Shown here piece by piece: positions 42,677 through 64,000 of a stretch of DNA of 64,000 nt (position 1 is the stretch's first letter; each line of letters opens with the position of its first letter). Source of the stretch: Collybia mongolica (taxonomy: Eukaryota > Basidiomycota > Agaricomycetes > Agaricales > Clitocybaceae); NCBI GenBank assembly GCA_013420905.1, contig JAAXNY010000014.1:248001-312000 (forward strand), in the 5' to 3' direction. The notes under the pieces were generated by a model that made no database searches, was not told the origin of the DNA, and saw only the letters and a list, made by a program, of their open reading frames with translations. Both the position numbers and the translations under genes were made by a program.

Positions 42677-42724
42677 GGACGCAGGGAGGGTACTCAAGCG
42701 TTTCGACAAAAAGTTACTTGATTA

Positions 42725-45700
42725 ATGTCTAGTACAACTTGTAATGTAAATACGCTCAGAACCTACTGCCAAAATGTCGGGCGCAAACGACACTGGACAG
42801 TTGACCTGTTAGAACGCCGCAAGGACGTCACTGACATTCTCTTCCTGCAGGAGCCACCATGGGCCACTGTACGGTATACAGCCTCCTTGACCGAAAAAGA
42901 CGGGGTCCCCATCAGGGGACCCCCCGTCCACCCGGACTGGATTCCCATGTTCCCCAAAGGGTTCGACGCTGCCGAAGATCGGCTGCGTGTCATGGCCTAT
43001 GTCAACCAAGCTATCCGCTCGGTGAAACCTAAGCTCCGATCAGACATCGTTAACCACCGCGATGTCATGCTCATCACTGTTCGAGGTCACCTTGGCCCAG
43101 TGCATTTGATGAATGTCTACTCAGATGAGAATGGATCAGCAGTCCAATTCCTCGAAGACCACCTGGATGAGTTCCCCGATGTTAGCTATATGGGGGGTGA
43201 TTTTAATTGCCCCTCAGCGCATTGGGATGCTACCCTCAATCATGAGCACCCCATGGCCAACAGGCTCATGGAGTGCGTGGCCGCCCTCAGCCTTGAGAGG
43301 ATTGCCCCCCCCTCGGGGTGGGTCACGCATCAGCCGTATAATACGGCCCTGCGCGGCTTGGTCCTTGACCTTGTGTTTGTCCCGGCATTCCGGGGTTACA
43401 CAGCCAACTTGACAATAGGTGATAAGGGTGAACCTGATCACTTTCCTCTACTCCTAGACATCCCCCTTAGGGTCGAGCTCCCCGAAGGGAAGATGTCAAT
43501 CAAAATCGACTCCGAAGAAGAGACCGCTTTCCTCGCGGAAGTGTGTTCACTTCTCAGGCTCATCCAAATCCCTGACGTCTCATCAGCGGAACAAACTCAA
43601 CTAGTTGCTCAGGCAATAGCTAAGGGCTTTGAAACGGCGTGGTCCCACCATGCTAAGACTAACCGGGCTTGCGCCCGGTCTAAGTCTTGGTGGGACTCGG
43701 ACTGTGCCCGGACGAGGTCTGAGGCTATGAGCTCTGATCTCCCAGAGGACTGGAAGGCCTTCAAGGCCGCCACGCACAGAGCAAAACAAAAGCACTTCGA
43801 CGAACGCATCGACGAAATTGCTAATACTAACCTCAGACCATGGGACCTCATGGACTGGGTGGGCCCATGCAAGACACCCCCGGTCGAGGCTATCTCGTAC
43901 CAAGGCGTGCCATGCAGCACCACAGAGTCGCTATGGAATGCATTGCACTCCACCTTCAACTCAGCTATTGATAGGCCAATTGACCTTGACAAGCTGGGCA
44001 ACGCTTGGACCTCACCCACAACGCGGGTGTGGGTCCCCTACTCTGCTGCTGAGATGTCGGATGCCCTTTCAGGCACCTCAAATCGATCCGCCCCTGGGCC
44101 GGATCACATCTCATGGCGTCACCTTAAACGGATCACCCAAGATAATCGGTGTAGCAAACTACTCTTGTGGCTTGCAAACGCTTGTCTCTTGTCAGGCCAT
44201 TGGCCTGCCGAGTTTAAAGCATCCATTACGGTGGTCATACCCAAGCCAGGTAAACCATTGTATGACACTCCCAAGTCGTTTCGCCCAATAGTTCTATTGA
44301 ACACACTGGGCAAACTTCTAGAGAAAATGTTGTCCACCAGGATGCAGTTTGAAGCTGCTCAACATGGTGTACTCCACCCCAATCAGTTCGGAGGAGTCTG
44401 TCAGAACTCCACCAAGGATGCTGGCTGCTTTCTCACACATGTTGTCCGCTCGGGATGGCATGCCAAACTCAAGACGAGCGTCGTCGCATTCGACCTAGCT
44501 CAGTTCTTCCCATCCATAAACCACGAGGTCCTCCTACACATCCTCGAGAGACAGGGATTTGCGCCAGAAGTGGTTGCGTTCTTCAGGTCATACCTCGTTG
44601 ATCGTCATACTAGATACGCGTGGGACGACGAATTGTCCCCGCTCTTCCCATCCAGTGTGGGTCTGGGACAGGGCTCCGCCATGTCCCCCATCCTCTCTGC
44701 CCTATGCCTCGCACCCCTCCTCAAGGAATTTGAATGGAGGGTCCGCATAGCCTCACTAATTTCCTATGTGGACGATGGCACCATTATAGTGCAATTGGAC
44801 ACATTCGAACAGAACCTTGTTAAGCTCAAAGGGGCCTACAAAGTCGTATTTGAGCTCACCCAGGCTATGGGTTTGGTACTCAAACACAGCAAGTCAGAGG
44901 GATTCCACTTCTCTCAAAAACACAGCGATATCAACCCTGACATCGACCTTGGCTATGTCCCATATACTGGGGACACCCCCCTCCGCCCTGGCACCATTTG
45001 GCGCTACCTCGGATTCTTCTTTGACCGTCCCCTCACATTCAGAGAGCACGTCAAATGTTACACAAACAAAGCCCTCACCTCTGTAAAGGCTATGCTCTCC
45101 CTTGGCAACTCGGTGCGCAGGCTTGGGCCTAAGCACAAGCGAATGCTATACCGAGCCTGTGTTCTTCCCATTGCTACATATGGGAGCAGGCTCTGGATGT
45201 ACGAAGGGGCCCACATGGCAGGCCCTCTCAATAACCTCCGGAAGATGCAAAGGCGAGCGTGCCTTTGGATCACTGGTGCCTTCAAGACATCCCCAAACGG
45301 GGCTGGCGAGACCCTTGCAGGCATACCCCCTATCCACCTCCATGTCAGAAAGCTGGTGGAAAGGAGTCATGTCCGCTCCCATGCACTCCAGGCCTCACAT
45401 GCCTTTCGACGCCTCATCAATGGGAACCACAAATTCTCTGTCGAGACCCTCAATGCCTGCAACCCAAGCCGTAGGCTCGGTAAACTCGTATCGCCCATCA
45501 TAGAGGCCTGGTCTAACCTTGGCCTCTCTTCCCTGGATCTAGACCCTGTCCACCCACTCAACCAACCAGGCATGCGCCCCAAGGACCTGTTCCCTGGCCG
45601 CATTGTCTACGACATTGTCACCCCCCCACCTAAGGGCAGTGATCACCACGAGGAATTCATGAAAGACCGCATCACATCGCTGAAGAGCACTGTTGATGAG

Positions 45701-46579
45701 GCCTCTCATTCCCCATGGAGCATCTGCATTATCACTGATGCATCCACCCCCCCTCCTCCCATGCAGTCAGTCGCAGTTTACCGCGCCTGGCACGATGGAG
45801 ACTTATATGAGGACTGGTTTGCTACCGGCCTCTCTACGTCTGATGACGCCGAGCTGCAAGCAATTGCGGAAGGCGCCCAACAGGCAGCTGACATTGGACT
45901 AGAAGACATCCATGATGTCCATATCTTCTCCGACTCCATCAACGCCCTCAGGTGTTCCCTCAATGCGTCGCACCACTCAGGTCAAGCATCAGCCCTCAAA
46001 GTGTGTGATGTGCTGTTGCCTTGGATGCAGCTCCGCGCCATCCACAAGATTCACCTCCACCACATTACAAGTGGCGTGGAGATTGAAGACCACCAACTGG
46101 CACACATCAGCGCCGTCTCAACTCGCGTTGAGGCAGGTGGAGCGCTGGTTATATCTGCTGACTTTGCACGACGCGAAGCAGTCACACGCATGCTTGATGA
46201 CTGGAAGTCTCTCTTCCAGTCCAAGAAGTACATTGGCTCCAATTTCCTGACGCTGTATGTGAAAAAGGACACCCCGCTCACTCCAACCCATGTAAACAAT
46301 GGGCCGTGGATGCACAAGACTGGTCACAGCCATGCTCTGACTGCCCGCTTGGTGCGATGCATCACCGGACACGCTCCAATTGGGGTGTTCCGATCACGAT
46401 TCTTCAAGGAAGAATCTGTCTCCTGTAGGTGCGGTGCTCCCTTGGAAACCGTACAACACGTACTATTCGACTGTCCAAGGCATGGACGGGAAGACAAGCC
46501 CAGCCGCCAGCTGCGCTATGTGTGGCTGGTTGGATTCCTCTCGGAGAACAAAAACGCATTCGCGTTTGATGTTCCCTAG
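42725..46579 (+). CDS. LINE ORF2: endonuclease, reverse transcriptase, RNase H
   Basis: This is a 1284-residue uninterrupted frame. The APE-type endonuclease motifs are LFLQEPP (about residue 38), YMGGDFNCP (about 155) and EPDHFPLLLD (about 236). The reverse transcriptase has FDLAQFFPSINHE (motif A, about 588), GLGQGSAMSPI (motif B, about 646) and SYVDDGT (motif C, about 680). The RNase H part shows ITDAST, DAELQA and FSDSINA with the expected D-E-D order, and the end has a CRCG-x6-H-x4-C finger. The domain order and the RNase H fit the fungal Tad/L1-like clade. The start assumes the ATG at 42725; the enzyme is predicted to be active. Confidence 0.92.
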   Translation: MSSTTCNVNTLRTYCQNVGRKRHWTVDLLERRKDVTDILFLQEPPWATVRYTASLTEKDGVPIRGPPVHPDWIPMFPKGFDAAEDRLRVMAYVNQAIRSVKPKLRSDIVNHRDVMLITVRGHLGPVHLMNVYSDENGSAVQFLEDHLDEFPDVSYMGGDFNCPSAHWDATLNHEHPMANRLMECVAALSLERIAPPSGWVTHQPYNTALRGLVLDLVFVPAFRGYTANLTIGDKGEPDHFPLLLDIPLRVELPEGKMSIKIDSEEETAFLAEVCSLLRLIQIPDVSSAEQTQLVAQAIAKGFETAWSHHAKTNRACARSKSWWDSDCARTRSEAMSSDLPEDWKAFKAATHRAKQKHFDERIDEIANTNLRPWDLMDWVGPCKTPPVEAISYQGVPCSTTESLWNALHSTFNSAIDRPIDLDKLGNAWTSPTTRVWVPYSAAEMSDALSGTSNRSAPGPDHISWRHLKRITQDNRCSKLLLWLANACLLSGHWPAEFKASITVVIPKPGKPLYDTPKSFRPIVLLNTLGKLLEKMLSTRMQFEAAQHGVLHPNQFGGVCQNSTKDAGCFLTHVVRSGWHAKLKTSVVAFDLAQFFPSINHEVLLHILERQGFAPEVVAFFRSYLVDRHTRYAWDDELSPLFPSSVGLGQGSAMSPILSALCLAPLLKEFEWRVRIASLISYVDDGTIIVQLDTFEQNLVKLKGAYKVVFELTQAMGLVLKHSKSEGFHFSQKHSDINPDIDLGYVPYTGDTPLRPGTIWRYLGFFFDRPLTFREHVKCYTNKALTSVKAMLSLGNSVRRLGPKHKRMLYRACVLPIATYGSRLWMYEGAHMAGPLNNLRKMQRRACLWITGAFKTSPNGAGETLAGIPPIHLHVRKLVERSHVRSHALQASHAFRRLINGNHKFSVETLNACNPSRRLGKLVSPIIEAWSNLGLSSLDLDPVHPLNQPGMRPKDLFPGRIVYDIVTPPPKGSDHHEEFMKDRITSLKSTVDEASHSPWSICIITDASTPPPPMQSVAVYRAWHDGDLYEDWFATGLSTSDDAELQAIAEGAQQAADIGLEDIHDVHIFSDSINALRCSLNASHHSGQASALKVCDVLLPWMQLRAIHKIHLHHITSGVEIEDHQLAHISAVSTRVEAGGALVISADFARREAVTRMLDDWKSLFQSKKYIGSNFLTLYVKKDTPLTPTHVNNGPWMHKTGHSHALTARLVRCITGHAPIGVFRSRFFKEESVSCRCGAPLETVQHVLFDCPRHGREDKPSRQLRYVWLVGFLSENKNAFAFDVP

Positions 46580-49549: not shown

Positions 49550-50195
49550 ACTAGAGAAAAAACAATATTTACAACATTGGATTGTTGACATTGACCCAGT
49601 TCTCCCACTCAAACAGGGTCCACATGCTTTGGAACTGCAGCAAAATGTTCAGCAAGGCAAATACAATCAACAACAGAAGTATATATACCTGAGTTTCATT
49701 GCAATATGCAGGCTTGATGTAGTCTATGAAATCAATATGAATATCATTCAAGATCACACACACCTTGGACATGCTAGGGCCCTCCAACAGGATGCTGCCG
49801 AAGATGACACCTGTCTCTGCCAACGACACTTGTCTTCAACTCTTTCTTCTCTGCAGCCCATTTCTGTTCATACTATGTCCATTGTCAATGCCATAAGAGT
49901 TCTGAAAAGCTAGGGACAACCACCTCCTGTGACTCAAACATCTTTGAGAAAGCAGCCTTGGTATCTGTCAAGAAGACCTCCTGTACAGCTTGCTGTGCCT
50001 CAAGTTCGCACAATGTCTGATTACAGTTCCTGATCTGCTCATTCGAGTCCTCGTTGATCTGTACTGCTACAAATTTCGACTGTCCAACCTGGATGGTTGA
50101 TGTCATGATCAGCATACCCTATACCCAAGATGACGTTAGCCCCCCCCCCCCCAACCACACATATATCAAGGCTGGAAATACATATCTTCCGCGTT
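49550..50195 (-). pseudogene. Chimeric partial copy of SEC26
   Basis: Read on the minus strand, 50195-49875 matches the intron before exon 10, exon 10, the following intron and the start of exon 11 of SEC26 (about 7195-7540). It then jumps directly to the end of exon 14, the next intron and exon 15 (about 8080-8340). Introns are retained, so the copy is DNA-derived, not a processed pseudogene. Preserved pieces include [41 protein letters not shown] and [10 protein letters not shown]. About 540 bp are deleted. Its outer flank is a short repeat shared with 15126-15174, then a terminal-repeat-like end shared with 245-306. It is non-functional. Confidence 0.85.
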
Positions 50196-50239
50196 GGGTT
50201 TGTGTTAAGAAGGGTGTCTTGATGAATGGCTGTGTTTAG

Positions 50240-50300
50240 GGCTGCACACCATACCATCTGACGGGTATGGCTGTACAATCAATGGTCATGAGATGGTGAA
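50240..50300 (+). repeat. Terminal-repeat-like fragment next to the SEC26 fragment
   Basis: TTTAGGGCTGCACACCATAC and the next 40 bp match 245-306 in inverse orientation. The position just outside the SEC26 fragment suggests that the fragment was carried within a small DNA transposon. Confidence 0.5.
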
Positions 50301-50833
50301 AGGGGGCTCCTGGGCTATAAGTGTGCTGATGCTATGAAATGTAATCCCTTACACACACACACCAAACCTAACAATCAACACACGAACAGTAGGAATCGCC
50401 TGTTTTGAGTTCGGGTTCAAGTGCTTAGAAGCACTAAGCTTTGAATAGTACTAGCCAAAGCCCTTTCCAATGATCTCTCAACGGGTTTGATTTAGACAAA
50501 AGCTTCAACACAGGTTTAAAAACCTGCTAGGTATATTTATAATATCTCTCGATCCAATAGACTGAGTACCAAGTGTACATTCAATTATTAATGATCCCAA
50601 GCGGATCTATAAGTCCAAGCGACTTATCAAACAATACAGTGCCAAGTGCACTAAGGCCAAGTGCCTAGTAATTCCAACGGACAATATGGTACTAAGTTCC
50701 AAGTGAACTAAGTTTCTTTAATTCTGTGGTTCTTCAATCAATTCCAATCAAGACACGTTGAAGCAATCTGATCCTTAATTCAGGCACGCAATAGTGTTTT
50801 AACAAATGTGATTTGTATACTCTATAGTAGCAC
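50301..50833. other. Non-coding with repeated CCAAGTG motifs
   Basis: At least six CCAAGYG motifs, often followed by CTAAG- or ACTAAG-like sequence, lie between 50570 and 50720. The stretch may be the continuation of the old inverted LTR fragment beginning at 50834. No gene is supported. Confidence 0.35.
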
Positions 50834-51150
50834 GAAGTGGGGGCAAGATTCCTTGCCTTAGCGCTACTCATCTACAGTCTATTTATAGTGTACAAACTAA
50901 ATATCATACGGAATTGTAAATTTTACACGGAACTGTGCTCCCGCGCGCCAAGGATCTGTATTCAATGCTGATGCATCCTCTACAACTTGGCACGTGCGCC
51001 ATGCGTGCCAATTATGCCGTTTACTGGTTACTTATCAAATATTGAAAGAGCTGGCTAAACTCTTATCAAGTCCCGACTGTGCGCTTTGTTATTTAAAACA
51101 GCGCGGCACTGTCATTTACTCCTCCTGATTGTCCCAGTTGCTATTCACGG
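50834..51150 (-). repeat. Older inverted LTR fragment abutting the 5' LTR
   Basis: The sequence is the reverse complement of about 51505-51830 of the adjoining LTR, at roughly 90 percent identity with an excess of CpG to TpG/CpA changes. It ends exactly where the 5' LTR starts (CTATTCACGG then TGATAGGGCC). It is therefore a remnant of an earlier insertion of the same family in opposite orientation, into or beside which the younger element inserted. Confidence 0.8.
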
Positions 51151-51830
51151 TGATAGGGCCCGAAATTGTTTGCACTTATAAAGTCGACAAGTAAGGCTAT
51201 TAGTGTCATTTCTAATAACCAAGTAAGCGGTAATAAAGGATTAGAGTCGAGCTCCAAGACGGCTAATCAGAGTGAACTAGTCTAATGGATAATACACTAT
51301 CAGTACAGAGGACTATGAGTACGGTCTATTATTAGTCCTATTCACCATGCCCGGTTACAACCTCGGTGTCTTAGTTCATAAGTAACCGTTGTAGTATGAT
51401 ATCATTAGTCCGGGGATCATCATTAATAGGAGAAGTAATTGTAAATTCGGGACTTGCACAACCCGATCCTAGTCAGGGGTACTTGGTGTTAACTACCGGA
51501 AGCGACGGGACACCGTGAATAACAACCGGGACAATCAGGGGGAGTAAACGACAGTGCCGTGCTGTTTTAAATAACAAAGCGCGCGGTCGGGACTTGATAA
51601 GAGTTTAGCCCGCTCTTTCAATATTTGATAAGTAACCAGTAAACGACATAATTGGCACGCGTGGCGCGCGCGCCAAGCTGTAGTAGACACGTCGATATTG
51701 AATACAGATCCTTGGCGCGCGGGAGCGCGGTTCCGTGTAAAATTTACAATTCCGTATGATATTTAGTTTGTACATTATAAATAGACTGTAGATGAGTAGC
51801 GCTAAGGTAAGGAATCTTGCCCCCACTTCG
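51151..51830 (+). repeat. 5' LTR
   Basis: It starts TGATAGGGCCCG and is matched to the 3' copy at 63314-64000 over about 680 bp with about five differences, all transitions (for example near 51557 and 51690). A TATAAATAG box near 51777 is a likely promoter. The two copies diverge abruptly after CCCCCACTTCG, so the true 3' border is uncertain. Confidence 0.85.
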
Positions 51831-51958
51831 TATTTAGAACTCCAGAGCCCTTAGGAAACATATCGACTACTAGTAAACCAGTAGCGCGCGGAAGATCGTC
51901 CGTAGTAAACCCAGTAGCAAACCCGAACTCGTTAGCTACTCAGAACCGTTCAGTAATC

Positions 51959-53470
51959 ATGACTGAACCCCCTTGTAAATATATGCCCCAACCAGGCGTC
52001 CGTGATGCACCAGTATTCAAAGGAAAAGAGCCCACGGGTTTAATCCGGTTTCTGGAGCGAATGGAGGTCCTATGGAAGGAGTGTAACATTACAAATGATG
52101 AAGAAAAGAAGTTAATGTTAGGAAAATACGCAGACCTACAATCAGAGAATGAGTGGAGGGCATTAGACCACTATAAGACAGGCACTTGGACGGATTTCAA
52201 GACAGAGTTGATCTCTAGTTATCCGGAAGCACTCGATCAAGTAGAAGGATCAGTAGCCAAGTTAGAAGCAGTGTGTCGCGCCAACCCACGTATTGGAGTA
52301 ACCGATGAGGCCGCGCTGAAAAAGCTGAAGCGTGAATTCAAAGCAGAATCTATTAAACTCTTGGGAGTTAGGCCACCTATTATCTCTAACCGAGAATTAG
52401 TTACCAAGTTCTTGGGATGTCTAGACGAAGTCTTCAGATCCCAAGTACAAGGAAGGCTAACCCTGCTAGGGAATAATCAGTCTAATGCTACACAGGCAGG
52501 ACAAGCCGTTGCTACAAACAACCGAGCAGATCCTAATACTATTGCCAAAGCCGCCGCGCTCGCGCGACGAAAAGGGGATCAGTACGATCTGGAGGAAGTT
52601 ATAGCAACTGCAATCAGCATTTCTGAAGGTGTAGCCAACATGAATATTCCAGACACGAATAGATCGTTTATAACGTCCGTAACAGCAACAGCAGCGCCCA
52701 AAATCAAAGTAGAGATGGATGAAATAAAACAACAAATAGTTAATTTGTTAGACCGTCTCCAAGTAAATGAGAAGAATATGAGGAGTGGATTCGAGGATGT
52801 AATGAAAGCGCTTCAACAAGCAACTGTTCAGAACCATGCCACAAATAGCGCACCCCAGCAGCATCAGTATCAGAATCAGTACGGAAAGCCTAAAGAAGGA
52901 CAACCGCAAAGACCAAATGCGTATAAATGTCACTACTGTTTTACACCCGGACACTTCATAATGGCCTGTCCCGAGAAACAGAAACATTTTGAGGAAGGGA
53001 AAATAAAAACCAACGCAAATGGAGGAGTATGCTTACCAGACGGATCATATATTCCAAGAGAACCAGAAACAGTATCATTGAAAGATAAAGTGGAACACTT
53101 CCATTCAAAGAAGGTAGCGGCCCTTTATTACGGAGATGTCACGGAAGGACCCGCTCCAGGAGTATTGTCCGTTATGCAGTCACATAATGCAGTAGACAAT
53201 AGTAACGACATTGGAACCTTGAAAGCCATAATGGCACAAATGGCACAATTTCAAGCGCAACAAATGTTAGGACAACAGAGCGCGCAAACTGCGTTGCCAG
53301 TACTGCCTCAGATGCAGAAACAGGAATATATAAATAATAACTATAATCCTACGGCAAAGAGCGTGCCGAATCCTGACATAGCAGCCTTACAAGCACAAAT
53401 GAGTACTTTATTAGGGCAGGTAGCAGAACTCAATAACCAAAACAAGGTTAAAGAGTCGGGTTTCAATTAG
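51959..53470 (+). CDS. Gag capsid/nucleocapsid protein
   Basis: A 503-residue frame starts at ATG 51959. The capsid-like N-half includes LIRFLERMEVLWKECNITND and a WTDFKTELISSYP helix. A single C-x2-C-x4-H-x4-C zinc knuckle lies at about residues 324-337 (nucleocapsid, RNA binding). The C-tail is glutamine-rich. The frame ends in TAG at 53468-53470, immediately after a GGGTTTC heptamer, with the protease frame in the -1 register just beyond. Confidence 0.85.
   Translation: MTEPPCKYMPQPGVRDAPVFKGKEPTGLIRFLERMEVLWKECNITNDEEKKLMLGKYADLQSENEWRALDHYKTGTWTDFKTELISSYPEALDQVEGSVAKLEAVCRANPRIGVTDEAALKKLKREFKAESIKLLGVRPPIISNRELVTKFLGCLDEVFRSQVQGRLTLLGNNQSNATQAGQAVATNNRADPNTIAKAAALARRKGDQYDLEEVIATAISISEGVANMNIPDTNRSFITSVTATAAPKIKVEMDEIKQQIVNLLDRLQVNEKNMRSGFEDVMKALQQATVQNHATNSAPQQHQYQNQYGKPKEGQPQRPNAYKCHYCFTPGHFIMACPEKQKHFEEGKIKTNANGGVCLPDGSYIPREPETVSLKDKVEHFHSKKVAALYYGDVTEGPAPGVLSVMQSHNAVDNSNDIGTLKAIMAQMAQFQAQQMLGQQSAQTALPVLPQMQKQEYINNNYNPTAKSVPNPDIAALQAQMSTLLGQVAELNNQNKVKESGFN
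53458..53464 (+). promoter_or_regulatory. Candidate -1 ribosomal frameshift heptamer
   Basis: GGGTTTC stands in the gag frame as G GGT TTC, the X XXY YYZ form, three bases before the gag stop codon. Slipping back one base enters the protease frame (CAA TTA GGT CCG ATG), which has its own ATG at 53476. No downstream structure was evaluated. Confidence 0.4.
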
Positions 53471-53475
53471 GTCCG

Positions 53476-54681
53476 ATGAAGGAGGCTAAGGAACACGCTA
53501 GACCTACGACTAGGTCGCGTTCCAAGAGACAGCCAGAGGACCGAAATAAAAACAGAAATAGTCGTCAAGAAAGTAACGATTCGGAGAGTAGTCGGGATAT
53601 TAGCGAGGAGGAGTTGGTAGCGCCGTCTCCTAGGAAAAAGAAAGTAAAATTTGTTGAACCATCAGTAAAGTCTCCAGTACGAAAAGAATTACCCTACATC
53701 GATGTGCCCGTGGTACCCTACATACCCCGGAGAACGGAACGCAACCCTGAACCAGTTGATCCGCTACCTAATTTTAACACTAAGCGCGGTCCGACTTATG
53801 AAACTAAGTCCCCGATAGAAGTAAAATTAAAAGGTGGCGATATAATTGCTAAAGTGTTAGACAACCCTATCACATTGACCACGGGAGAGTTAATGGGCTC
53901 GTCAAAAACCATTAGAGATGGGATAAAGAATATTGTAACTGCCAGACGTAAGTCCCTCACCCAAAGGGACGCTAACTTGCAAATAAACGGAATAGATGAG
54001 GAAGACGTCTTACCCTTTGGAGGGGACTGGGAACTTGATGATAACTACTTACGGCATGACGCACTACCAGTAGAGTCAATCCCATTCCAGTCTTTCTTCA
54101 TCTCGGAGTATGACTGCGGCGGAATACCTAAGGGATCTATAATATGCGGAGACCCAGTCCTACAGTATTTAGAATCTTTACCAGCTGGGGAAGAGCCCAA
54201 ACAGTTGTATGTAGCAAAAGAATCGGCCTCTTTGCGCGCAGTATATCCAGTAATAAATGGGGTAGGAACGGAGGAATCTTTATTAGATGGGGGATCCCAA
54301 ATAGTATCAATGGCTAAACAAACGGCTTTAGACTTAGATATTTCATGGGATCCGGACGTTGTCATACACATGCAGAGTGCTAATAAACAAGTTGAGAAAA
54401 CAGCGGGATTAGTGCGCAATGTTCCTTTCTTGTTTAATGACATGGCCATCTACCTCCAAGTACATATCATAAATTCACCCGCATACAAAGTATTGCTCGG
54501 GAGACCGTTTGATACACTCACGGAAAGTCAGATCAAAAATGCTCGGGACGGGGGACAAGTAGTCACTATCACGGACCCTAACACGGGACGAAGGTGTACT
54601 ATCCCTACCCATGCAAAGGGATCACCGCCTAAGCTGTTGAAAAGACAACCGGAGCAGGATTTTCGGCCTTTGATGAATTAA
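53476..54681 (+). CDS. Retrotransposon aspartic protease polyprotein segment
   Basis: The frame is 401 codons from ATG 53476. The N-part is charged and disordered (basic KKKVKF). The protease domain lies near residues 255-370, with LLDGGSQIVSM as the active-site-type segment (the family uses LLD-G-SQI rather than DTG). HMQSANKQVEK, GLVRNVPFLF and LLGRPFDTLT follow, as usual for fungal Ty3 elements. The next frame (pol) is in the -1 register and overlaps the last 50 or so bases. The residue after the catalytic Asp is Gly instead of Thr/Ser/Pro; activity is uncertain. Confidence 0.75.
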   Translation: MKEAKEHARPTTRSRSKRQPEDRNKNRNSRQESNDSESSRDISEEELVAPSPRKKKVKFVEPSVKSPVRKELPYIDVPVVPYIPRRTERNPEPVDPLPNFNTKRGPTYETKSPIEVKLKGGDIIAKVLDNPITLTTGELMGSSKTIRDGIKNIVTARRKSLTQRDANLQINGIDEEDVLPFGGDWELDDNYLRHDALPVESIPFQSFFISEYDCGGIPKGSIICGDPVLQYLESLPAGEEPKQLYVAKESASLRAVYPVINGVGTEESLLDGGSQIVSMAKQTALDLDISWDPDVVIHMQSANKQVEKTAGLVRNVPFLFNDMAIYLQVHIINSPAYKVLLGRPFDTLTESQIKNARDGGQVVTITDPNTGRRCTIPTHAKGSPPKLLKRQPEQDFRPLMN

Positions 54682-54809
54682 TCCAAAGTGATCAAGGAGA
54701 GCTAGCCGTAGAAATTGCTGAAGATGAGAACGGAAACTTTATTATAACGGGTTATAGACACCCTACTGATAAACGGAATTTTGGTCACAAAGAACTTAGA
54801 GATGTCTTT

Positions 54810-57800
54810 TTGTCTAGAAGTGATGTGAACATGAATAGTACAGTACCTGAACGCGAATTACTAGCCACGTACTTGGCTTCCGTAGATGAGCGCGATGGAC
54901 CAGTAATAAACTATGAGCAGAACAGCAGCGACCCAGCAAGTACACCCACTAGACCTATGACATACGCTCAAGAACAGCCCATGATCGATAAAGCTTTAAG
55001 TAAATTAAAGCAGTGGCAAATTGGCACCAACGAGCGCGGTCTTGGAACTGCAACAAGTGAAAAGTGTAATATTGAGCCCATGGATCAGCTAGTAGGAAAG
55101 AAGTATAAACCAGTACATTTGAAAACAAAACCAACACTGGCGGACCTGCCTGATAAATTTAGAATTATCAGAGATATAAAGGGTGACCCTTTAGCGGCCC
55201 TACCAGTTCTAACGCCTAACCCACCTCCGTTTAAACCAACTGGAAGGTATACTGAGGAAAGGCGCGCGGAATTCCAAAGGGTACACGAAGAAGAGAGCTT
55301 CTTAAAACCTAAAGAGATGGATATAATCCACGACTTTATGTGCAAACATAATGATGGTTTTGCTTGGAATGATAGTGAGCGCGGTAGCTTTAAGAAGGAA
55401 TATTTTCCTCCCGTCGAGATACCAGTAGTCCCACATACGCCGTGGACAGAAAGGAACATTAGAATCCCACCAGGGATCTATGAAGATGTTTGTAAAATCA
55501 TCAAAACTAAAATTGATGCAGGAGTCTATGAGAGATCCAATTCATCATATAGGTCTAGATGGTTTACCATATTAAAGAAAGGCCCAGGAAAGAAGCTTAG
55601 AATTGTACATAGTCTAGAACCGCTGAATGCAGTCACAATAGCGCACTCGGGCTTACCACCCGCTACCGAAGAACTAGCAGAACACTTCGCAGGGCGCGCT
55701 TGTGGCGGAATGATGGATCTATATGTAGGATACGATGAGAGGCCTTTGGCAGAAACCTCGCACAATCTAACCACGTTCCAAACACCGTTTGGCGCACTGA
55801 GACTAGTAACACTTCCTATGGGATGGACGAATTCAGTTCCAATATTTCATGATGATGTCACATACATCCTACAGGATGAGGTACCACATGTCACAATACC
55901 CTACATTGATGATGTACCCGTGCGCGGTCCAGCAACGCGCTACGAACTGCTGGACGGAACAGAAGAAGAGCTACCTGGTGCTCCAGGTGTTAGGCGCTTC
56001 TTCTGGGAACATATGCAAAATGTAAATTGCGTCGTACAGAGAATGAAGTATTCTGGAGGAACGTTTTCAGGATATAAGTCTATGTTATGCGCAAGTGAAA
56101 TTCTAGTGGTAGGACATAGATGTACCTATGAAGGACAAAAACCTACTACAGATAGAATCGGTGTAGTTGAAAGATGGGGACCATGCAAAGATGTCAGTGA
56201 AGTACGCGCTTACATGGGAACTATTGGTGTATGCAGGAATTTCATTAAAGACTTCGCCCGTATAGGCCAACCAATTCAAAAGTTAACTAGAAGTAGCGAA
56301 CCTTGGATATGGGGGCCTGAGCAAGAAGAAGTGCAGCAGCTATTGTTAGACGCACTTAAAAATAGCCCCGCGCTCCGTCCAATTAATTACACCTGGAATA
56401 CGCCAGTGGTATTGTCAGTAGATACGTCATGGAAAGCCGTAGGCTACTATATCTATCAGGAAGACCCTGATATACCTGGAAGAAAGCACTATGCTAGATT
56501 TGACTCGATAACTCTGAATGAGCGCGAAGCGCGCTTCTCACAACCCAAACGAGAGCTATTCGGATTGATGAGAGTTCTAATGGCATGTTATTATTGGTTT
56601 ATTGGAGTACGAAATTTGGTAGTGGAAACGGATGCAAAGTACATTAAGGGGATGTTATCAAACCCAAGTCTAGGACCTAATGCAACGGTAAATAGGTGGA
56701 TTGATAGGATACTTATGTTCCACTTTACTCTGGTTCATAAAGCTGGTAAAGGCTTTGGCCCAGATGGTCTGTCAAGACGAGACGCGCGGCTAGGGGATCC
56801 TGTCTACCCGGACCCAGACGATGGTTACGACGAACCCTCAGGTCCTTTAAAGTTTATCAACCCAACGGAAGGGTTAGATGACCCTTTGGAGCTGTCAGAT
56901 TTTAAAGAGGAGATCGACACGTGCAGCGGATATTTATTCCAACTTGCGAAGGAAATCTCTGATTTTGAAATTGAAGTAAACAATGCCTGGGCTGGTGAAG
57001 CAGCATTTATTGGAGAAGTAAAACAGCACTTAGGTTTAGGACGGTTCGGTTTTCAAAGAGAAGCTTATCTAAAGCAACTTGTAAATACTACTGTCATACC
57101 CGATGAAAAGTTTAAATATGACCCTAATGTAAGGGAAGTATATGACAAGTCTAAACGAACACCTACGGCGCAGGAGCAGGATAAAAACCTACCTTTAATA
57201 AAAGAATGGTTAAAAAGACCACAAAAGAGACCAAAAGGAATGACAGATCGCGCCTACCTAAAGTTTGCAAGGCAGGCGTCTAATTTCCTTTTGGATCCAG
57301 AAGGCAGGATGTATAGGAAAAGTATCGATAGCGCGCACCAGCTTGTTGTTGATAAAAATCACCGAACATATATGATGAAGGCGTCTCACGATTCTGTTGG
57401 ACATAGGGGTTTCTATGCAACAAAATCCTTAATAGATAAAAGATTTTGGTGGCCAGAAATGGAACGCGATGTATCATGGTATGTGAAGTCATGTCACATC
57501 TGTCAGACAAGGCTCTTAACTTTGTTGAGAATCCCTCCTGTCATAACCCACACGCCATCTATATTCCAAGTATTGCATGCGGACACCATGTATATGAGCC
57601 CATCGTCTAATGGTTATAAATACATTGTCCAAGGAAGATGTGCGCTGTCTTCGTGGATGGAAGGCGCGCCCCTCAAATCTGAGGATGGCAAGACCTTGGG
57701 AAGGTGGCTGTTTGAAGAAGTAATTTGTAGATGGGGTTCCCTAACGGAAATTGTAACGGATAATGGTCCTGCCTTTGTCGCAGCCAAAGCGTGGCTGGAA

Positions 57801-58052
57801 TCCAAGTATGGTATTACAGGAATAAGTATATCACCATACAATTCCAAAGGAAATGGGATCGCCGAGCGCGCACATTGGGATGTGCGTCAAGCTGTCTTCA
57901 AAGCTACAGGTGGTGATGTAAAGAAGTGGTACTACTTCTTCCACCATGTAATGTGGGCTGACAGAATTACTATACGGAAAGGGACGGGTTGCTCCCCCTA
58001 TTTTATGATTACGGGCGCGCACCCAACCTTACCGTTAGATATGTATTATTGA
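54810..58052 (+). CDS. Pol: reverse transcriptase, RNase H, integrase
   Basis: The open frame in fact reaches back to about 54640, overlapping the protease frame, and no ATG is needed if it is made by frameshift. The reverse transcriptase shows a GYDERPLAE segment and PYIDDVPV (about residue 364). RNase H is seen in [18 protein letters not shown] and the [12 protein letters not shown] block. The integrase has an H-x3-H...C-x2-C finger (about 860-899), then the D-D-E residues in [15 protein letters not shown] and GIAERAHW (about 924, 983, 1018). The frame ends early at TGA 58050-58052; the natural continuation follows in another frame (58053-58680). Confidence 0.88.
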
Positions 58053-58680
58053 AGCCACTTGGTTAGTAAAGTTACCAGGAAAAATATTGACTACAGAGGA
58101 ACTCATTGGGTTTAGAGTGCAGGCTCTAGCTAAGCACGTCCAGCATGTGGCCGATATGAGGAAACGTATCAATATAGAAAAACGAAGGAGACTATTACAG
58201 TATGAGAAGGATCACAGCGCGACCATCAGAGACTATGATTTCAAACCAGGAAGTTTAGTACTAGTTAGAAATACCGAGGTCGAAAGTTCGCTCGATAAAA
58301 AGCTGAAGCCACGGTACCTGGGACCAATGATAGTCCTGAGACGAAACCGCGGGGGAGCCTATATTGTTTGCGAAATGGATGGATCGGTGTGGCAACATAA
58401 AGTGGGGGCGTTTAGGGTTATTCCCTATTTTGCTAGGAGTACAATTGAACTGCCGGATAATCTGCAAGATCTAATAGACATCTCTAGCGAAACACTAAAT
58501 GCTTTAGTGGAATCGAAAGATCCCGCTAATAGGCAAGTTTACAAGGAGCGTGACTATACTTTTGACAGAGTCCAATTGGATCAGTCCGATTCAGAGTCAA
58601 GCTCTAGTGAGAACACTGAGGAGGGGATAGCGCCGGCGCTACCACAAACTACTATGTCACACCGGAAGTTGCATAGGTGA
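58053..58680 (+). CDS. Pol C-terminal segment, separated by a frameshift
   Basis: Just before the pol stop, the sequence [11 protein letters not shown] is encoded in the next frame, leading into [28 protein letters not shown] and [11 protein letters not shown]. This is the usual C-terminal extension of Ty3-type integrases. One extra base near 58040 would explain the shift. It ends with a serine/glutamate-rich tail and TGA at 58680. It could be a mutation, a base error or programmed. Confidence 0.7.
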
Positions 58681-58826
58681 TAAATCAGTATGGAAACAGA
58701 AGCAGTAAAGACAGTATAAGCAACTAAGCTAAGTAGTAAGGACAGTGTTAAGCCAAGTAAAGACAGTAATACAAAGGAGCATGGGGAGGGACACCATAAC
58801 TCAAGAGGAAGTTAATTGGACTGTCC

Positions 58827-60209
58827 TCAAGCAGATATGAAGTCGTCTTCAACCTCGGGCAAGGGCACGTCAGCCGGAGCTACCTCCTCCTTATCATTGT
58901 CATCCTGGTCATGGACTTCCGTAGCGCTCGCAGTGGCAGCCTCGTCAGAGCCCCCCTCCAGAGCGGCCTCGTTCATTAGACCGTTGAGGCAAGTAACCTC
59001 GTCCATAGTGGCATCACAACGCTTCAATAAGAAGGACACTGTATGACTGATCTCCTCCAACTCAGCGCGGTAGTTTAAGAGCATCCTACCGAGGGCTTGC
59101 TTGGTGTGCGACATGGGATCGCCCGCGTCTGCAATCAAGCGCGCCCGCGCTAAGACTACATCGTGCTCCTTGGAGGGACGGAAGTCAATAAAGACACGAG
59201 TATCTGATGCACAGTTGGTATAAATTTAGAACCATCTATTATTAGAAAACGTACCCTCAGCAGATGCCTTTGGATCTTCATCCGGGGTGTCCTGCCTCGT
59301 ACGCTTTTTGGGACGAAGAGTGCTGCCGCGATTGAGCTCGGAACGCTTACCGTCCTGTAGGAATAAGAAACAAAGTAATAGACAGAGCAAAAACAAGAAT
59401 GGGTACCTTGATGGCAGCCTTTTCAGCCTTAGTCCTTTTGACACGGGGAACCTTAATGTTCTCCTTCTCCTTGCGGCTACGGGTGATTGGTCCTTCACTA
59501 AGGAGACGACTAGTCACTGATCCAGAGAGAGCAGCACTAGCCGTAGCGCCGGAATCAATGACCATATTCTTGAGTAAAGAAGAGACGCCATTGAGTATGT
59601 CGCGCACTGACAGCGCGGTAGCTAAAAAGAAACATACCGAGTCAGTACCAGACATTTCAATGTCACCGTCATATTCACCGCCAGCAATGACCTCGCCTGG
59701 AATAGTGGTACCATCCGCTTCACCACCAGTAGCAGGGACCTAGTACCAGAAAACCATGGTTTAAAAAGAACAGTACAGTACAAGATGAGGTAAAAAGCAC
59801 GCACCGCGGTTTGAGACAGGTGCTCAGTGCGGAGCTTTTCACGGTGACGGTGAATAGCGGCAGTAAGAGTCACAATGTTGCAGTAGACAGGCTCTTGAAG
59901 TAACTCGGGGTATACATGTTGTAGTCCCTGGAAAGCTTTACGGACGCCAAAGATAACATTCTGCCAGGACCGCTCCGTCAAAACCATTTTGGACTCAGTC
60001 AGGAGTAGCTGTAAATTGTAAAAGTTGGTTATGATAACGGCGTATAAAAGTTAAATTGGTAAAAAGTGTACCGCGGTTTCACCTAACTTCCGGACACTGA
60101 CCCTTTGTTCAACAAGGGTGTCCATCGATAAATGAGCTTGAAAGGTGTTCCACAGAGCTTGGACCATCTTGAAGTTCTCGATGTCTTGATAGTTGGGGAG
60201 GCTAGTCAT
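58827..60209 (-). CDS. Antisense accessory gene 1 of the retrotransposon (383 aa, unknown)
   Basis: Five exons join in phase: 60209-60072, 60008-59805, 59739-59407, 59354-59255 and 59203-58827. The four GT-AG introns are 51-65 nt. The product starts MTSLPNYQDIENFKMVQALW and has a helical N-half. A serine/threonine- and lysine-rich middle carries two nuclear-signal-like basic clusters (PRVKRTKAEKAAIK; RPKKRTRQ). Then comes a helical region RMLLNYRAELEEISHTVSFL and an acidic tail ending EVEDDFISA. No family is recognised. It lies between pol and the 3' LTR, on the strand opposite to gag-pol, convergent with pol (147 bp apart). Perfect exon phase across four introns argues for a functional gene. 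Confidence 0.75.
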
Positions 60210-60916
60210 AATGATGCAGAGGAAATTGGTTCTTCGATACAGAACGATGTAAAGAGAGTATAATAGAGTCGGGCGATGTCTTTGGACAGAAAGCACAGCC
60301 AATCCCCTTTTTATACCTCTATGACTAGAGAAGCGCTACCCAGTCTCTCATTCATTGCGCGCGCTCTACCCCCAGAAAAATCTATACATTTCAACTGAAC
60401 AGGTCCGAGACGCGTGCCTAATTGAAATACTGGGCCCAATTGAAAAAGGAGCTCCGTAAAAATTCATGTGGAGCGCGGCAGTGTCCGCATGACAACTGGG
60501 ACAGTTGTTATCAGTGTTGAGGGGGAGATGGGTATAAGCAAAACCGATTTAAAAAAAAAAAAAAAAAAACCTACCAAGGTTACAAGGATTGAAATAGATT
60601 GTCTATAAAAAGTCAGTGATCGCGCCACGGTCTTAATGATCGAGAGAATTGCACCAGAATTAAACCGTACTATTTATAACTTAAGTAGCCGGGGCAAGGG
60701 CGGAAGCTTTCTTATGAAGACAATAGAACAACGGCAAAACCAATTGTATTGTTTAAAGTCCAGGGGACTGTATATAAGACATGTGTTGGACTTCAATTAA
60801 AAAAAATTGAAGCCCAACGAAAGGCGGGGGAATATGTAAGTAAAAAAAAAAAAAAGGGCACTAGGGCCCAGGGAAACACAGATATATATATAAAACATAG
60901 GGGGGGCGCGGCGCGG
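60210..60916. other. Spacer between the two antisense genes
   Basis: This holds the probable promoter of antisense gene 1 (minus strand) and the terminator region of antisense gene 2. It contains an A19 tract near 60551 and an A14 tract near 60841, and a TATATATATAAAAC stretch near 60882. No further coding frame is supported. Confidence 0.45.
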
Positions 60917-62861
60917 CTACTCCTCCTCGCTGTCAGGCACGGACGAAGAGGAACTTGATGACGAAGAACCGTCATCAACCTCTGCTTCTTCCTCCAAGGG
61001 CGGCCAAGGGAGGTTCTGGAAATCCGCGTAGAAGAGGAGAGCGCCCTCCGTGGCTGGCGTAGTCAGCAAGAGGTTTTGAAGGCCCTCCAGGCCTTCCTCC
61101 TCGTACAACTTACTGATGGTGCCAACTATGCGCGCCAACAAGGAGTTGCGCATTTCAAGCGCGCGGTTAGCGGCCTGAATGACCTCCGCGGCAAGAGAGT
61201 CCGCGTCGCCTAGCTGAGCATAGGCTTCAGCAACCGCTAGTAGAATAAGTAAAATCATTAGTAAACAAAAAGACAGAAAGAAAATGGCTTACTAGAAATG
61301 CCCGCACCAAGCATCGGCCCCAGATCCTCACGAAGCCTAGCGCGCTTCTGGGGAGTGAGGCTGAAGCTGCACTTCCCCTTCTTGGCGGTGGCGCATTCAA
61401 CGCACGGTTTACCCCAACCGTTGAAGGTGCACTCAATGTCGCCGCGGGTGGCGCACATCGTGCAAGGATAGCCCACCTAGTAAAAATGATCAGTAACAAG
61501 AAATAAAGTAGTAATAAACATACAGAAGAGCGCCGCGGCGCAAGGTCAGCCAGCAGGGAGGTAATAGGGGACTGTAGCGGCGTCAGCTCCCGGTTGGGAA
61601 CCAGCACGTGCTTGCGGCGTGTCGCCTGAGCCCTATCCCTAGAACGGGTGGTCTTACGCGACCGACAAGGAGAAGGGGCCGCGGGAGGCAACAACTCCAC
61701 GAACCCCTCTTGAGCCAACTGGCGTGCGATCTCATCATCGAAGAGCCGAAGCTCAGGGACTTCAACCTTCACCGGCGGCTGCCCAGAGGACTAAGGAGAT
61801 AAAGATGAGTAAACGTAAATGACTTCAGAAAGAGACATACCGGGCCTGCTTCCGAGGGACGCAGCGCAGAAGCACTGCCAGTCCCCTGGGCGCGCGACAT
61901 GTCGGACTAGAATTTTGAAATCAAGTCAGCAATAATGTGAAACTCGTAAAGTAAAGGATATACCTGGGGAACCGCACGGCCTTTTCCCTTGGACCCAGCA
62001 TTACGCTTCCGCTTGAGGGGCTATTAAAATAAGTCAACCACCGAAGGAAAGTAATAAAAAGCAGTGATAAACAAACCGCAGGTACCAAGACCGGGGAGCG
62101 CACCGGCAAGGGCACGGCGGACCAATTGTCCCGGTACTGATGGTAACGGCGCGGCGCGCCAACCATGCGAGGCGGGACGAGGAAAGTATCTCGAAAGATA
62201 CTGTCACCATTGTCGCGCTCGAAGCGCGACCCCACCTGGTCAAGGACTTGCTCCACAGTGGGAGCCTGGCCCTAAAAGAACAAGGTAGTCAGCTTGACAA
62301 GGGGAGGCAGAGTAAAGAAGTAAACAAGTTATTTACCAGAAGAATGGAGTTGGCGCCCAGGTCAGTCGATATGACCGTACACCAGGATGACCACGAAGCC
62401 TCGCGCACGTCAACTGGGATGCGCATCACTTGAAGGTGAAGCGCGCGCAGGAGGAGGATAGCCGGATATGGCAGCGAGAAACGCGCGCCACGGACCACGC
62501 CAGTGATGGCATCCTGAGACCAGTAAATAAGTAAAAGGAGTTAACAAGTAAAAGATGGGCGTACGATGAGCATGGAGCAGTGATCAACAAAGTCGATCAA
62601 GTCATCAAGGTCAAGGGGACCTTGGTGGTCCATACGGGGCGCGAGCTCCTCGGCCATGATAATCCACCCTTGCTCCATAGCGACGAAGACGTCGCCCTCG
62701 GCATCTTCGAGGAGGTCCGAGAAGGAAGGGATCGGCTGGTCCACATAGACCATGGTGGGGGAACGGCCCTCAGTCAGCAGAATCGCGGCAGAAAGCGAGA
62801 GGGACAGCGCGGAAGGTGAGCGCAGAGCACGAGCCATGGCGGAAGTGGAAGTGGAAGACAT
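60917..62861 (-). CDS. Antisense accessory gene 2: Zn2Cys6-like cysteine-cluster protein (520 aa)
   Basis: Eight exons join in phase: 62861-62565, 62513-62337, 62271-62077, 62020-61964, 61906-61841, 61790-61524, 61476-61293 and 61236-60917. The seven GT-AG introns are 47-65 nt. The N-half is helical with an acidic stretch. A basic PLKRKR cluster in exon 4 could be a nuclear signal. Exon 7 carries C-x2-C-x7-C-x8-C-x2-C-x7-C, close to the spacing of fungal Zn2Cys6 DNA-binding clusters but with seven instead of six residues in loop one. The C-terminus is helical, then a serine run and an acidic end (PDSEEE). Similar cysteine clusters occur in basidiomycete proteins, but no function is established here. 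Confidence 0.75.
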
Positions 62862-63313
62862 TTCTGTTTGAAAAGAGTTGGAGCGTTTGAGCAATGCAGA
62901 TAGCAAAGAGATTTAGAAATGGGCTATAAAGTCCAAATTGTCTAAAACTTAGCAAGGACGCGAGCTTTTTAAAACGCACAACCCTGCATTGCGAAGCTCT
63001 GAAAGACAAACAGGAGTACTGATCTCTTGCTGAAGTGTCAGAAACATAACGAGAAAAATGTCCAGATGACTGAAATATCTGTAAAGCGATGTCTGAATGT
63101 CAAGTACTCTCTCAGGAGATGTATATAGCTGTCACGATCCTGATGGGAAGTAAAACCTCTGGGCTCGATCCCAACATCGCGCGCCTACCTGTCTAAAAGC
63201 GGAACCGTTGTAACATTGTACTGAAAGATTAGACGCGTGCAGACCCGAAGTATTGGACCAACATGCCGGCAAAGAGAGACTGAGGACAGTCTACATTTGT
63301 GGTATGGGGGAGA
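62862..63313. other. Antisense gene 2 promoter region and polypurine tract
   Basis: This is the upstream region of antisense gene 2. At its right end a purine-rich run (TGGGGGAGA, 63305-63313) directly precedes the 3' LTR, as expected for the plus-strand primer of reverse transcription. No coding frame is supported. Confidence 0.5.
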
Positions 63314-64000
63314 TGATAGGGCCCGAAATTGTTTGCACTTATAAAGTCGACAAGTAAGGCTATTAGTGTCATTTCTAATAACCAAGTAAGCGGTAATAAA
63401 GGATTAGAGTCGAGCTCCAAGACGGCTAATCAGAGTGAACTAGTCTAATGGATAATACACTATCAGTACAGAGGACTATGAGTACGGTCTATTATTAGTC
63501 CTATTCACCATGCCCGGTTACAACCTCGGTGTCTTAGTTCATAAGTAACCGTTGTAGTATGATATCATTAGTCCGGGGATCATCATTAATAGGAGAAGTA
63601 ATTGTAAATTCGGGACTTGCACAACCCGATCCTAGTCAGGGGTACTTGGTGTTAACTACCGGAAGCGACGGGACACCGTGAATAACAACCGGGACAATCA
63701 GGGGGAGTAAACGACAGTGCCACGCTGTTTTAAATAACAAAGCGCGCGGTCGGGACTTGATAAGAGTTTAGCCCGCTCTTTCAATATTTGATAAGTAACC
63801 AGTAAACGACATAATTGGCACGCGTGGCGCGCGCGCCAAGCTGTAGTAGACGCATCGGTATTGAATACAGATCCTTGGCGCGCGGGAGCGCGGTTCCGTG
63901 TAAAATTTACAATTCCGTATGATATTTAGTTTGTACATTATAAATAGACTGTAGATGAGTAGCGCTAAGGTAAGGAATCTTGCCCCCACTTCGCGCGACT
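63314..64000 (+). repeat. 3' LTR (cut by window end)
   Basis: This is a copy of 51151-51830 with about five transitions. The last bases (CGCGACT after CACTTCG) do not match the sequence after the 5' LTR, but they do resemble the older inverted fragment (TGCTACT). The LTR may therefore continue beyond the window. Confidence 0.85.

What the first reader, a model, noticed from the sequence alone, without database searches (positions are those of the whole stretch)
58827..62861. Two spliced antisense genes carried inside a Ty3-type retrotransposon
Between pol and the 3' LTR, 4.6 kb encode two genes on the opposite strand with 4 and 7 short GT-AG introns and perfect exon phasing. Because they are antisense, their introns are not recognised in the genomic RNA and would survive retrotransposition, so a retroelement can carry intron-containing genes. 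Antisense ORFs are known in some plant LTR elements, but a pair of multi-exon genes with nuclear-type features in a basidiomycete element is unusual. They may regulate the element, the host response or integration.
Basis: partly seen in the sequence, partly recalled or inferred. Interest (0 to 1): 0.9.

Follow-up and report, generated by a model that had tools for sequence, protein, structure and literature searches.

The report
Mushroom retrotransposon with backwards spliced genes
A multicopy jumping element in a fungal genome carries two intron-containing genes on its reverse strand, which would let them stay ordinary nuclear genes while the element copies itself through RNA; the copies show that both are real genes under selection, but what they do is not known.

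Summary
Between pol and the 3' LTR of a Ty3-type element lie two minus-strand genes: A (60209-58827, 4 introns, 383 aa) and B (62861-60917, 7 introns, 520 aa). They belong to the family: of 100 listed integrase sites in the genome, 66 have A and 56 have B at the expected distance, and 33 have the whole order PBS-IN-A-B-PPT. A is open in 29 of 30 sequences read, B in 21 of 21; all introns in these are GT-AG. Apart from one 3-nt and one 12-nt exon event, all indels fall in introns. pN/pS is 0.35 (A) and 0.22 (B). A matches an annotated protein of the agaric Collybia nuda at 62% identity over its full length, without gaps at the four splice junctions. The two shortened copies that I read are deletions, not empty sites. 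Antisense accessory ORFs before the 3' LTR are known (maize Grande, Silene Retand, Botrytis Boty/brtn). A pair of multi-intron genes with conserved TATA-like boxes is a new variant. Most likely they are nuclear accessory regulators; that function is inferred, and no RNA data were available.

The parts
51151..51830 (+). 5' LTR, truncated: first 680 nt of the 1216-nt family LTR; the rest, the PBS and the leader are missing in this copy
51806..53470 (+). gag-type ORF with a CCHC zinc knuckle
   Evidence: zf-CCHC_2 E 7e-6, 26.2 bits against a cut-off of 27
53452..54681 (+). ORF between gag and pol, no Pfam match (protease position, by place only)
54633..58052 (+). pol: reverse transcriptase, RNase H, integrase; best solved relative Ty3-G Gag-Pol
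58039..58680 (+). C-terminal integrase extension, out of frame with pol in this copy only (1 of 30 copies compared); no chromodomain match
58827..60209 (-). gene A, antisense, 5 exons / 4 introns, 383 aa; central basic clusters and an acidic tail
60310..60315 (-). TATAAA, 106 nt upstream of the A start codon; present in 30 of 30 loci read (at -105 to -107; L031 is the window's own)
60519..60530 (+). purine tract GAGGGGGAGATG between A and B, resembling the PPT; exact in 23 of 30 copies, a near variant in 7
   Evidence: wider similarity to the 3' end not significant
60917..62861 (-). gene B, antisense, 8 exons / 7 introns, 520 aa; six-Cys motif CX2CX7CX8CX2CX7C in exon 7, basic clusters, acidic tail
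62924..62930 (-). TTTATAG, 69 nt upstream of the B start codon; present in the 11 of 11 3' LTR loci checked (L004 is the window's own)
63299..63313 (+). polypurine tract before the 3' LTR
63314..64000 (+). 3' LTR (runs on beyond the window end to 1216 nt; 4-bp target duplication ACGG)
50297..51152 (-). piece of an older LTR of the same family in inverse orientation, into which this element inserted

Best explanation
This is a Ty3-type LTR retrotransposon family with two classes of genes. gag-pol is read from the LTR as the sense RNA that is reverse transcribed. A and B sit antisense before the 3' LTR, are transcribed from their own upstream promoters by host RNA polymerase II, and are spliced like host genes. 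Because splice sites work on one strand only, the sense genomic RNA keeps all 11 introns, so the genes pass each round intact. The proteins most likely work in the nucleus as accessory regulators of the element, for example by binding element DNA or chromatin and keeping the LTR transcribed. Shown: gene structure, antisense position in most listed copies, coding constraint, intron retention, conserved TATA-like boxes, basic clusters and acidic tails in both, a six-Cys motif in B. Inferred: transcription, splicing, nuclear location, DNA binding, the sign (activation rather than repression).
For: Frames and GT-AG kept in nearly all copies read, indels almost only in introns. Third-position excess: B 51/51/128, p 6e-12, and 18/19/76 outside CpG; A 53/37/65, p 0.02, and 17/13/33 outside CpG, p 0.004. 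pN/pS 0.35 and 0.22. Same place and spacing in the family. In the same 29 loci A is broken once but the end of pol ten times (loci were ranked by A, which favours intact A). TATAAA at about -106 of A in 30 of 30; TTTATAG at -69 of B in 11 of 11. Collybia nuda homologue of A, 62% identity over the whole length, no gap at any of the four junctions. Basic clusters, last-40-residue net charges -13 and -11. Analogy: Grande GENE23 is nuclear and has its own promoter, Retand TRP28 is predicted to bind DNA.
Against: No RNA or protein data. No Pfam domain in A or B (A has one sub-threshold match, SPECT1 at E 0.097), no solved relative of B (best E 0.88), and the six-Cys spacing is not the standard Zn2Cys6 one. 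The motif is complete in 20 of 21 copies, not all. 34 of 100 listed integrase sites lack A at the expected distance. A trans-acting nuclear protein would help all copies alike, so how selection keeps each copy intact is unexplained. Copies were ranked by similarity, which favours intact ones; the three B copies fetched as odd variants are damaged.
Confidence: 0.45

Rival explanations
1. A and B guide or license integration: they ride with the preintegration complex or mark target chromatin, in keeping with the family's strict NCGN target.
For: External LTR flanks are NCGN in 18 of 18 (5' side) and 19 of 20 (3' side) cases among 29 LTR loci, with 4-bp duplications. B has a cysteine motif that could bind DNA.
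Against: A local base preference is normally a property of integrase itself (general knowledge); nothing links A or B to the target. An mRNA made from integrated DNA would have to supply the protein in trans to particles.
Confidence: 0.15
2. A and B are restraint factors: antisense-encoded repressors that hold copy number down or hide the element, as for some retroviral antisense proteins.
For: Position and nuclear-type features fit as well as for an activator. Published antisense products of retroviruses include regulators (passages).
Against: The family is young and successful (over 100 LTR junctions; two LTR pairs differ at 2 and 5 of 1216 nt, the window's at 5 of 680). Acidic tails suggest activation more than repression, but weakly.
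Confidence: 0.15
3. The antisense RNA itself is what matters (double-stranded RNA, transcriptional interference), with the proteins secondary.
For: Antisense element transcripts can silence or tune retroelements (passages and section text of reviews).
Against: Coding constraint: pN/pS 0.22-0.35, indels confined to introns or multiples of three, full-length protein conservation at 62% in another agaric.
Confidence: 0.08
4. Captured host genes or a nested element: A and B were host genes (or another transposon) swept up once and now hitchhike without function.
For: Nuclear-type introns look like host genes. No other origin is known.
Against: Selection is purifying across copies. Of 89 B-motif sites, 4 lack an A, integrase or PPT mark nearby (lists of those marks capped at 100), and the two of these read (L081, L083) are damaged copies. 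No inverted repeat of 14 nt or more frames the segment; four weak pairs lie inside it. No empty site among the two short copies read.
Confidence: 0.1

Closest known systems
Plant LTR elements with antisense ORFs before the 3' LTR (maize Grande gene23, rice RIRE2, Silene Retand, PvRetro13), from PMC7264820 (first part and sections 7-8) and PMC11963269 (passages)
   [quoted passage not shown] unknown function; in Grande a nuclear product with its own promoter; in Retand a POL-3'LTR region of 2.9-6.6 kb (4.63 kb here) with predicted DNA-binding TRP28 proteins.
   Different: No TRP28 or other Pfam domain here; two genes; 4 and 7 introns. No word beginning with intron occurs in the text of either paper.
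Boty / BcGypsy1 with antisense gene brtn, Botrytis cinerea (Zhao et al. 2011, seen only as cited in PMC7264820, PMC8365987, PMC4227169)
   Same: Fungal LTR element with an additional antisense gene.
   Different: One gene, in ascomycetes; the Boty-like gag-pol is described with a CHROMO domain, not found here. Whether brtn is related in sequence or has introns could not be tested.
HTLV antisense genes such as HBZ (passages)
   Same: A nuclear product read from an antisense promoter at the 3' LTR end.
   Different: Different proteins; whether those genes are spliced was not looked up here.
Zn(II)2Cys6 fungal regulators (motif spacing recalled)
   Same: Two CX2C-plus-Cys triplets, lysine-containing second loop, basic clusters.
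   Different: Spacing CX2CX7CX8CX2CX7C; no Pfam hit for B even at E 5.

Membership tests
Ty3-type LTR retrotransposon | RT, RNase H, integrase in this order; closest solved relative Ty3 | tested here: met
Ty3-type LTR retrotransposon | LTRs starting TG and ending CA, PPT before the 3' LTR, target duplication | tested here: met
   (family; this copy has a truncated 5' LTR)
Ty3-type LTR retrotransposon | PBS complementary to a host tRNA | tested here: inconclusive
   a conserved sequence follows the 5' LTR, but a tRNA-like pattern guessed from it found nothing
Chromovirus | chromodomain at the integrase C terminus | tested here: not met
   no Pfam match in ORF 58039-58680
LTR elements with antisense accessory ORFs (aORF-3R) | coding gene(s) antisense between pol and 3' LTR | tested here: met
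LTR elements with antisense accessory ORFs (aORF-3R) | present and conserved in most copies | tested here: met
   A in 66 and B in 56 of 100 listed integrase sites; conservation
LTR elements with antisense accessory ORFs (aORF-3R) | own promoter and antisense transcript | tested here: inconclusive
   conserved TATA-like boxes only; no RNA data
LTR elements with antisense accessory ORFs (aORF-3R) | nuclear product | not testable with these tools
   basic clusters only
Retand lineage | TRP28 domain (PF04195) in the antisense protein | tested here: not met
Boty/brtn | sequence homology to brtn | not testable with these tools
   brtn sequence not held
Zn(II)2Cys6 cluster | CX2CX6CX5-12CX2CX6-8C (recalled) or a Zn_clus profile match | tested here: not met
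   CX2CX7CX8CX2CX7C in 20 of 21 copies; no Pfam match

The most novel reading that the evidence does not exclude
The element has a split life plan: gag-pol for the RNA phase, and a reverse-strand pair of full nuclear genes, with promoters and many well-formed introns, for the chromosome phase. The introns are themselves kept by selection because they make A and B mRNAs look like host messages and so escape small-RNA or spliceosome-linked surveillance of transposons, while the encoded proteins keep the LTR active in chromatin.
Probability: 0.15. Interest if true: 0.9.

Novelty: new variant of a known kind. Interest (0 to 1): 0.62.

Why it matters
Retroelements are expected to lose introns because they pass through RNA. 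This family shows, with eleven introns kept in 30 (A) and 21 (B) sequences, how antisense placement can get round that. It gives a clear case where accessory genes of an LTR retrotransposon are under purifying selection without being in the sense of the packaged RNA. It makes an old question testable: what do antisense accessory genes of LTR elements do, and how does selection keep a trans-acting gene in each copy?

Tried and rejected
Rejected or not supported: (1) one-off insertion or chance ORFs: refuted. (2) A and B as diverged duplicates: hhalign of the C-terminal exons scored 13.74 (E 0.11), and 4 of 60 column shuffles scored higher; full proteins E 0.59. The PPT-like stretch before A and before the LTR gave a local alignment score reached by 32 of 500 shuffles. 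(3) Nested DNA transposon: no framing inverted repeats. (4) B as a standard Zn2Cys6 protein: not met. (5) Primer tRNA: not identified. (6) Relatives in IMG/VR: pol and B exon 7 found none; one search used a wrong frame and counts for nothing. (7) Protein database: B none at E 0.01 among 7998 scored candidates, exon 8 none among 30. B has low-complexity words that may have crowded the candidates, so this is weak. (8) Automatic intron choice by a simple score: one search had a wrong start, one search stopped with an error at B, one search gave models that I did not accept; the models used are by hand, then tested on copies. (9) gag comparison failed: only the window passed my length filter. (10) Rfam: 0 matches in 50000-64000. 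(11) Bacterial-type promoter scan of the A-B gap: 0 found, not informative for a fungus.

Literature: ten searches. Among the rows listed (titles and abstract openings; some searches matched far more papers than were listed) I saw no intron-containing antisense gene pair in a basidiomycete LTR element. Only open-licence papers are held. Spliceosome-linked RNA interference in Cryptococcus, behind the novel case, is recalled.

Lacking: RNA data, related genomes, structure prediction (switched off).

Full report
WHAT IS THERE. The window is G000:C14:248001-312000 of a 45.97 Mb, 26-contig genome. At its right end lies a Ty3-type LTR retrotransposon. gag has a zinc knuckle (just under the curated cut-off), and pol has RT (by solved relatives), RNase H and integrase in that order. 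The best solved relative of pol is Ty3-G Gag-Pol, E 6e-24. The family LTR is 1216 nt, TGATAGGGCCCG to CCCCCTTTCA, with a purine tract before the 3' copy. In this copy the 5' LTR stops after 680 nt and joins internal sequence directly, so the rest of the LTR, the PBS and a 327-nt leader are missing. pol is also out of frame with its C-terminal end in this copy alone: 29 other copies lack that change, and 19 of the 30 compared read through the stretch in one frame. The copy sits in an inverted piece of an older LTR of the same family (50297-51152) with the 4-bp duplication ACGG. It is one damaged member, not the type specimen.

THE TWO GENES. From 58681 to 63313 the sense strand has only two ORFs of 100 aa or more, 135 and 120 aa. 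On the minus strand, hand-made models give A (383 aa, introns 63/65/52/51) and B (520 aa, introns 51/65/56/57/50/47/56), all GT-AG; nine are phase 0 and the last intron of each gene is phase 1. Two of four A introns and five of seven B introns are not multiples of three, so the frames exist only if they are removed.

THE COPIES. I took 29 further copies of A (the best of 40 scored out of 123 candidates) and 20 of B (chosen by me from the list of 40 scored out of 130, to span 94-99% identity). With the window, A is open in 29 of 30 and B in 21 of 21; the exception, L046, has a stop at codon 20. Every intron in each is GT-AG. Distinct indels: A 9 in 231 intron nt, 1 of 3 nt in 1152 exon nt; B 10 in 382 intron nt, 1 of 12 nt in 1563 exon nt (Fisher p 7.6e-7 and 7.0e-7). 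Splice dinucleotides: 0 of 44 positions vary, against 81 of 569 intron-interior positions. pN/pS: A 0.351 (26 unique), B 0.223 (21 unique); for comparison an integrase piece 0.231 and the C-terminal ORF 0.206. By pair distance, A is 0.39, 0.35, 0.33 (0.5-1.5%, 1.5-3%, over 3%); B is 0.29, 0.35, 0.29, 0.21 (under 0.5%, then the same bins), so only the most distant B pairs stand out. Third-position excess is strong in B and weak but present in A; 92 of 155 variable A sites and 117 of 230 variable B sites lie at CpG. In the same 29 loci the integrase end (1345 nt) is broken in 10, A in 1, but the loci were ranked by A. These samples are biased to young copies. Three B copies fetched as odd variants are damaged: L082 (87% DNA identity, an exon stop, two of seven donors not GT as aligned), L083 (92-95%, interrupted by another repeat) and L081 (71-74%, stop, one motif cysteine lost). 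In L082 and L083 the introns sit at the same places; in L081 an intron-like stretch stands at the places of introns 6 and 7, but as aligned neither keeps both GT and AG.

FAMILY-WIDE PLACEMENT. Pattern counts in the whole genome (reversed-pattern controls all 0; mismatches allowed in brackets): 5' LTR/PBS 107 (2), PPT/3' LTR 113 (2), integrase 104 (3), A start 105 (3), B GWGKPC motif 89 (0), B exon 1 stretch 37 (3). Only the first 100 places are listed for the four largest. Of 100 listed A sites, 66 have integrase upstream at the right distance and strand and none has a wrong-strand one within 6 kb; 33 have PBS, integrase, A, B and PPT all in order. Of 100 listed integrase sites, 66 have A and 56 have B at the expected distance, and 21 have none of A, B, PPT, PBS there. 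Eight of 100 A sites and four of 89 B sites have none of the neighbouring marks tested. Integrase to PPT is 5828-5892 nt in 53 of the 72 that have a PPT within 20 kb; 9 are shorter and 10 longer. The shortest (L084) joins the 3' end of A to the 5' end of B, and L032 lacks the middle of B; both are deletions. I read no other short copy, so a true empty site is not excluded, only not seen.

ACROSS SPECIES. Gene A's spliced product finds one protein at E 0.01 or better (7997 candidates scored from 5.8 billion): hypothetical protein BDZ94DRAFT_1234893 of Collybia nuda, 62% identity over 100% (Agaricales). The alignment runs through all four exon joints without a gap; gaps lie inside exons 3 and 4. 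This is independent support for the splice model, and it suggests an agaric or near host; fungal kinases (PF17667) elsewhere in the window agree with a fungus. Whether the Collybia gene lies in an element is not known. B found no relative, a weak negative.

WHY THE INTRONS PERSIST. By established splicing logic, GT-AG introns of the minus strand are not recognised in the sense genomic RNA. A search for the joined B exon1-exon2 in the genome gave 0 hits, though it would miss diverged copies.

LIKELY FUNCTION. Neither protein has a Pfam domain, and B has no solved relative. Both have central basic clusters and acidic C-terminal tails. B has six cysteines, CX2CX7CX8CX2CX7C, complete in 20 of 21 copies. 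TATAAA stands about 106 nt before A in 30 of 30 loci and TTTATAG 69 nt before B in 11 of 11 loci checked. The nearest published parallels are regulators by proposal: Grande GENE23 is nuclear with its own promoter, and Retand TRP28 proteins are predicted to bind DNA (passages of PMC11963269, first part and sections 7-8 of PMC7264820). I commit to nuclear accessory regulators of the element (0.45), activation more likely than repression. Integration guidance, restraint, RNA-level action and passive cargo are rivals. The strict NCGN target (18 of 18 and 19 of 20 external flanks among 29 LTR loci) is a lead for the integration rival only.

NOVELTY. Antisense accessory ORFs in LTR elements, fungi included, are known. 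What looks new here, within what ten searches of open papers listed, is a tandem pair with eleven conserved introns in a Ty3 element of a fungus whose nearest match is an agaric. I file it as a new variant of a known kind.

Noticed in passing
L002-L030 flanks (LTR ends): Target duplications are 4 bp and of the form NCGN: 18 of 18 external 5' flanks and 19 of 20 external 3' flanks; of 9 LTRs with both flanks external, 8 have matching tetramers. The family appears to insert at CpG.
   Followed up: partly
L081, L082; gene A and B alignments: Older copies look rich in CpG losses (many Arg to His, Cys or Trp changes, by eye), and 92 of 155 variable A sites lie at CpG; this suggests methylation-linked mutation of repeats.
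   Followed up: partly
58039-58052: Only the window copy has pol and its C-terminal end in different frames; 19 of 30 copies read through in one frame, and 10 of the 29 others are broken elsewhere in this stretch.
   Followed up: yes
60408-60530 versus 63231-63315: A PPT-like purine tract and nearby blocks upstream of gene A resemble the end before the 3' LTR; the tract is exact in 23 and near in 7 of 30 copies, but the wider similarity is not significant. Possible central PPT.
   Followed up: partly
9486-11681 (-) and 17876-20046 (+): Two fungal protein kinase genes (PF17667) in inverted orientation with closely similar sequence, a likely inverted duplication.
   Followed up: no
41126-46579 (+): A non-LTR retrotransposon: an ORF with zinc-knuckle-like cysteines (by eye), then a 1285-aa endonuclease and reverse transcriptase ORF. 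Pieces of it flank several LTR copies.
   Followed up: no
L009 (G000:C2:287847-291524): A rearranged element in which the 5' end of gene B follows the first 116 nt of internal sequence, in inverted orientation.
   Followed up: no
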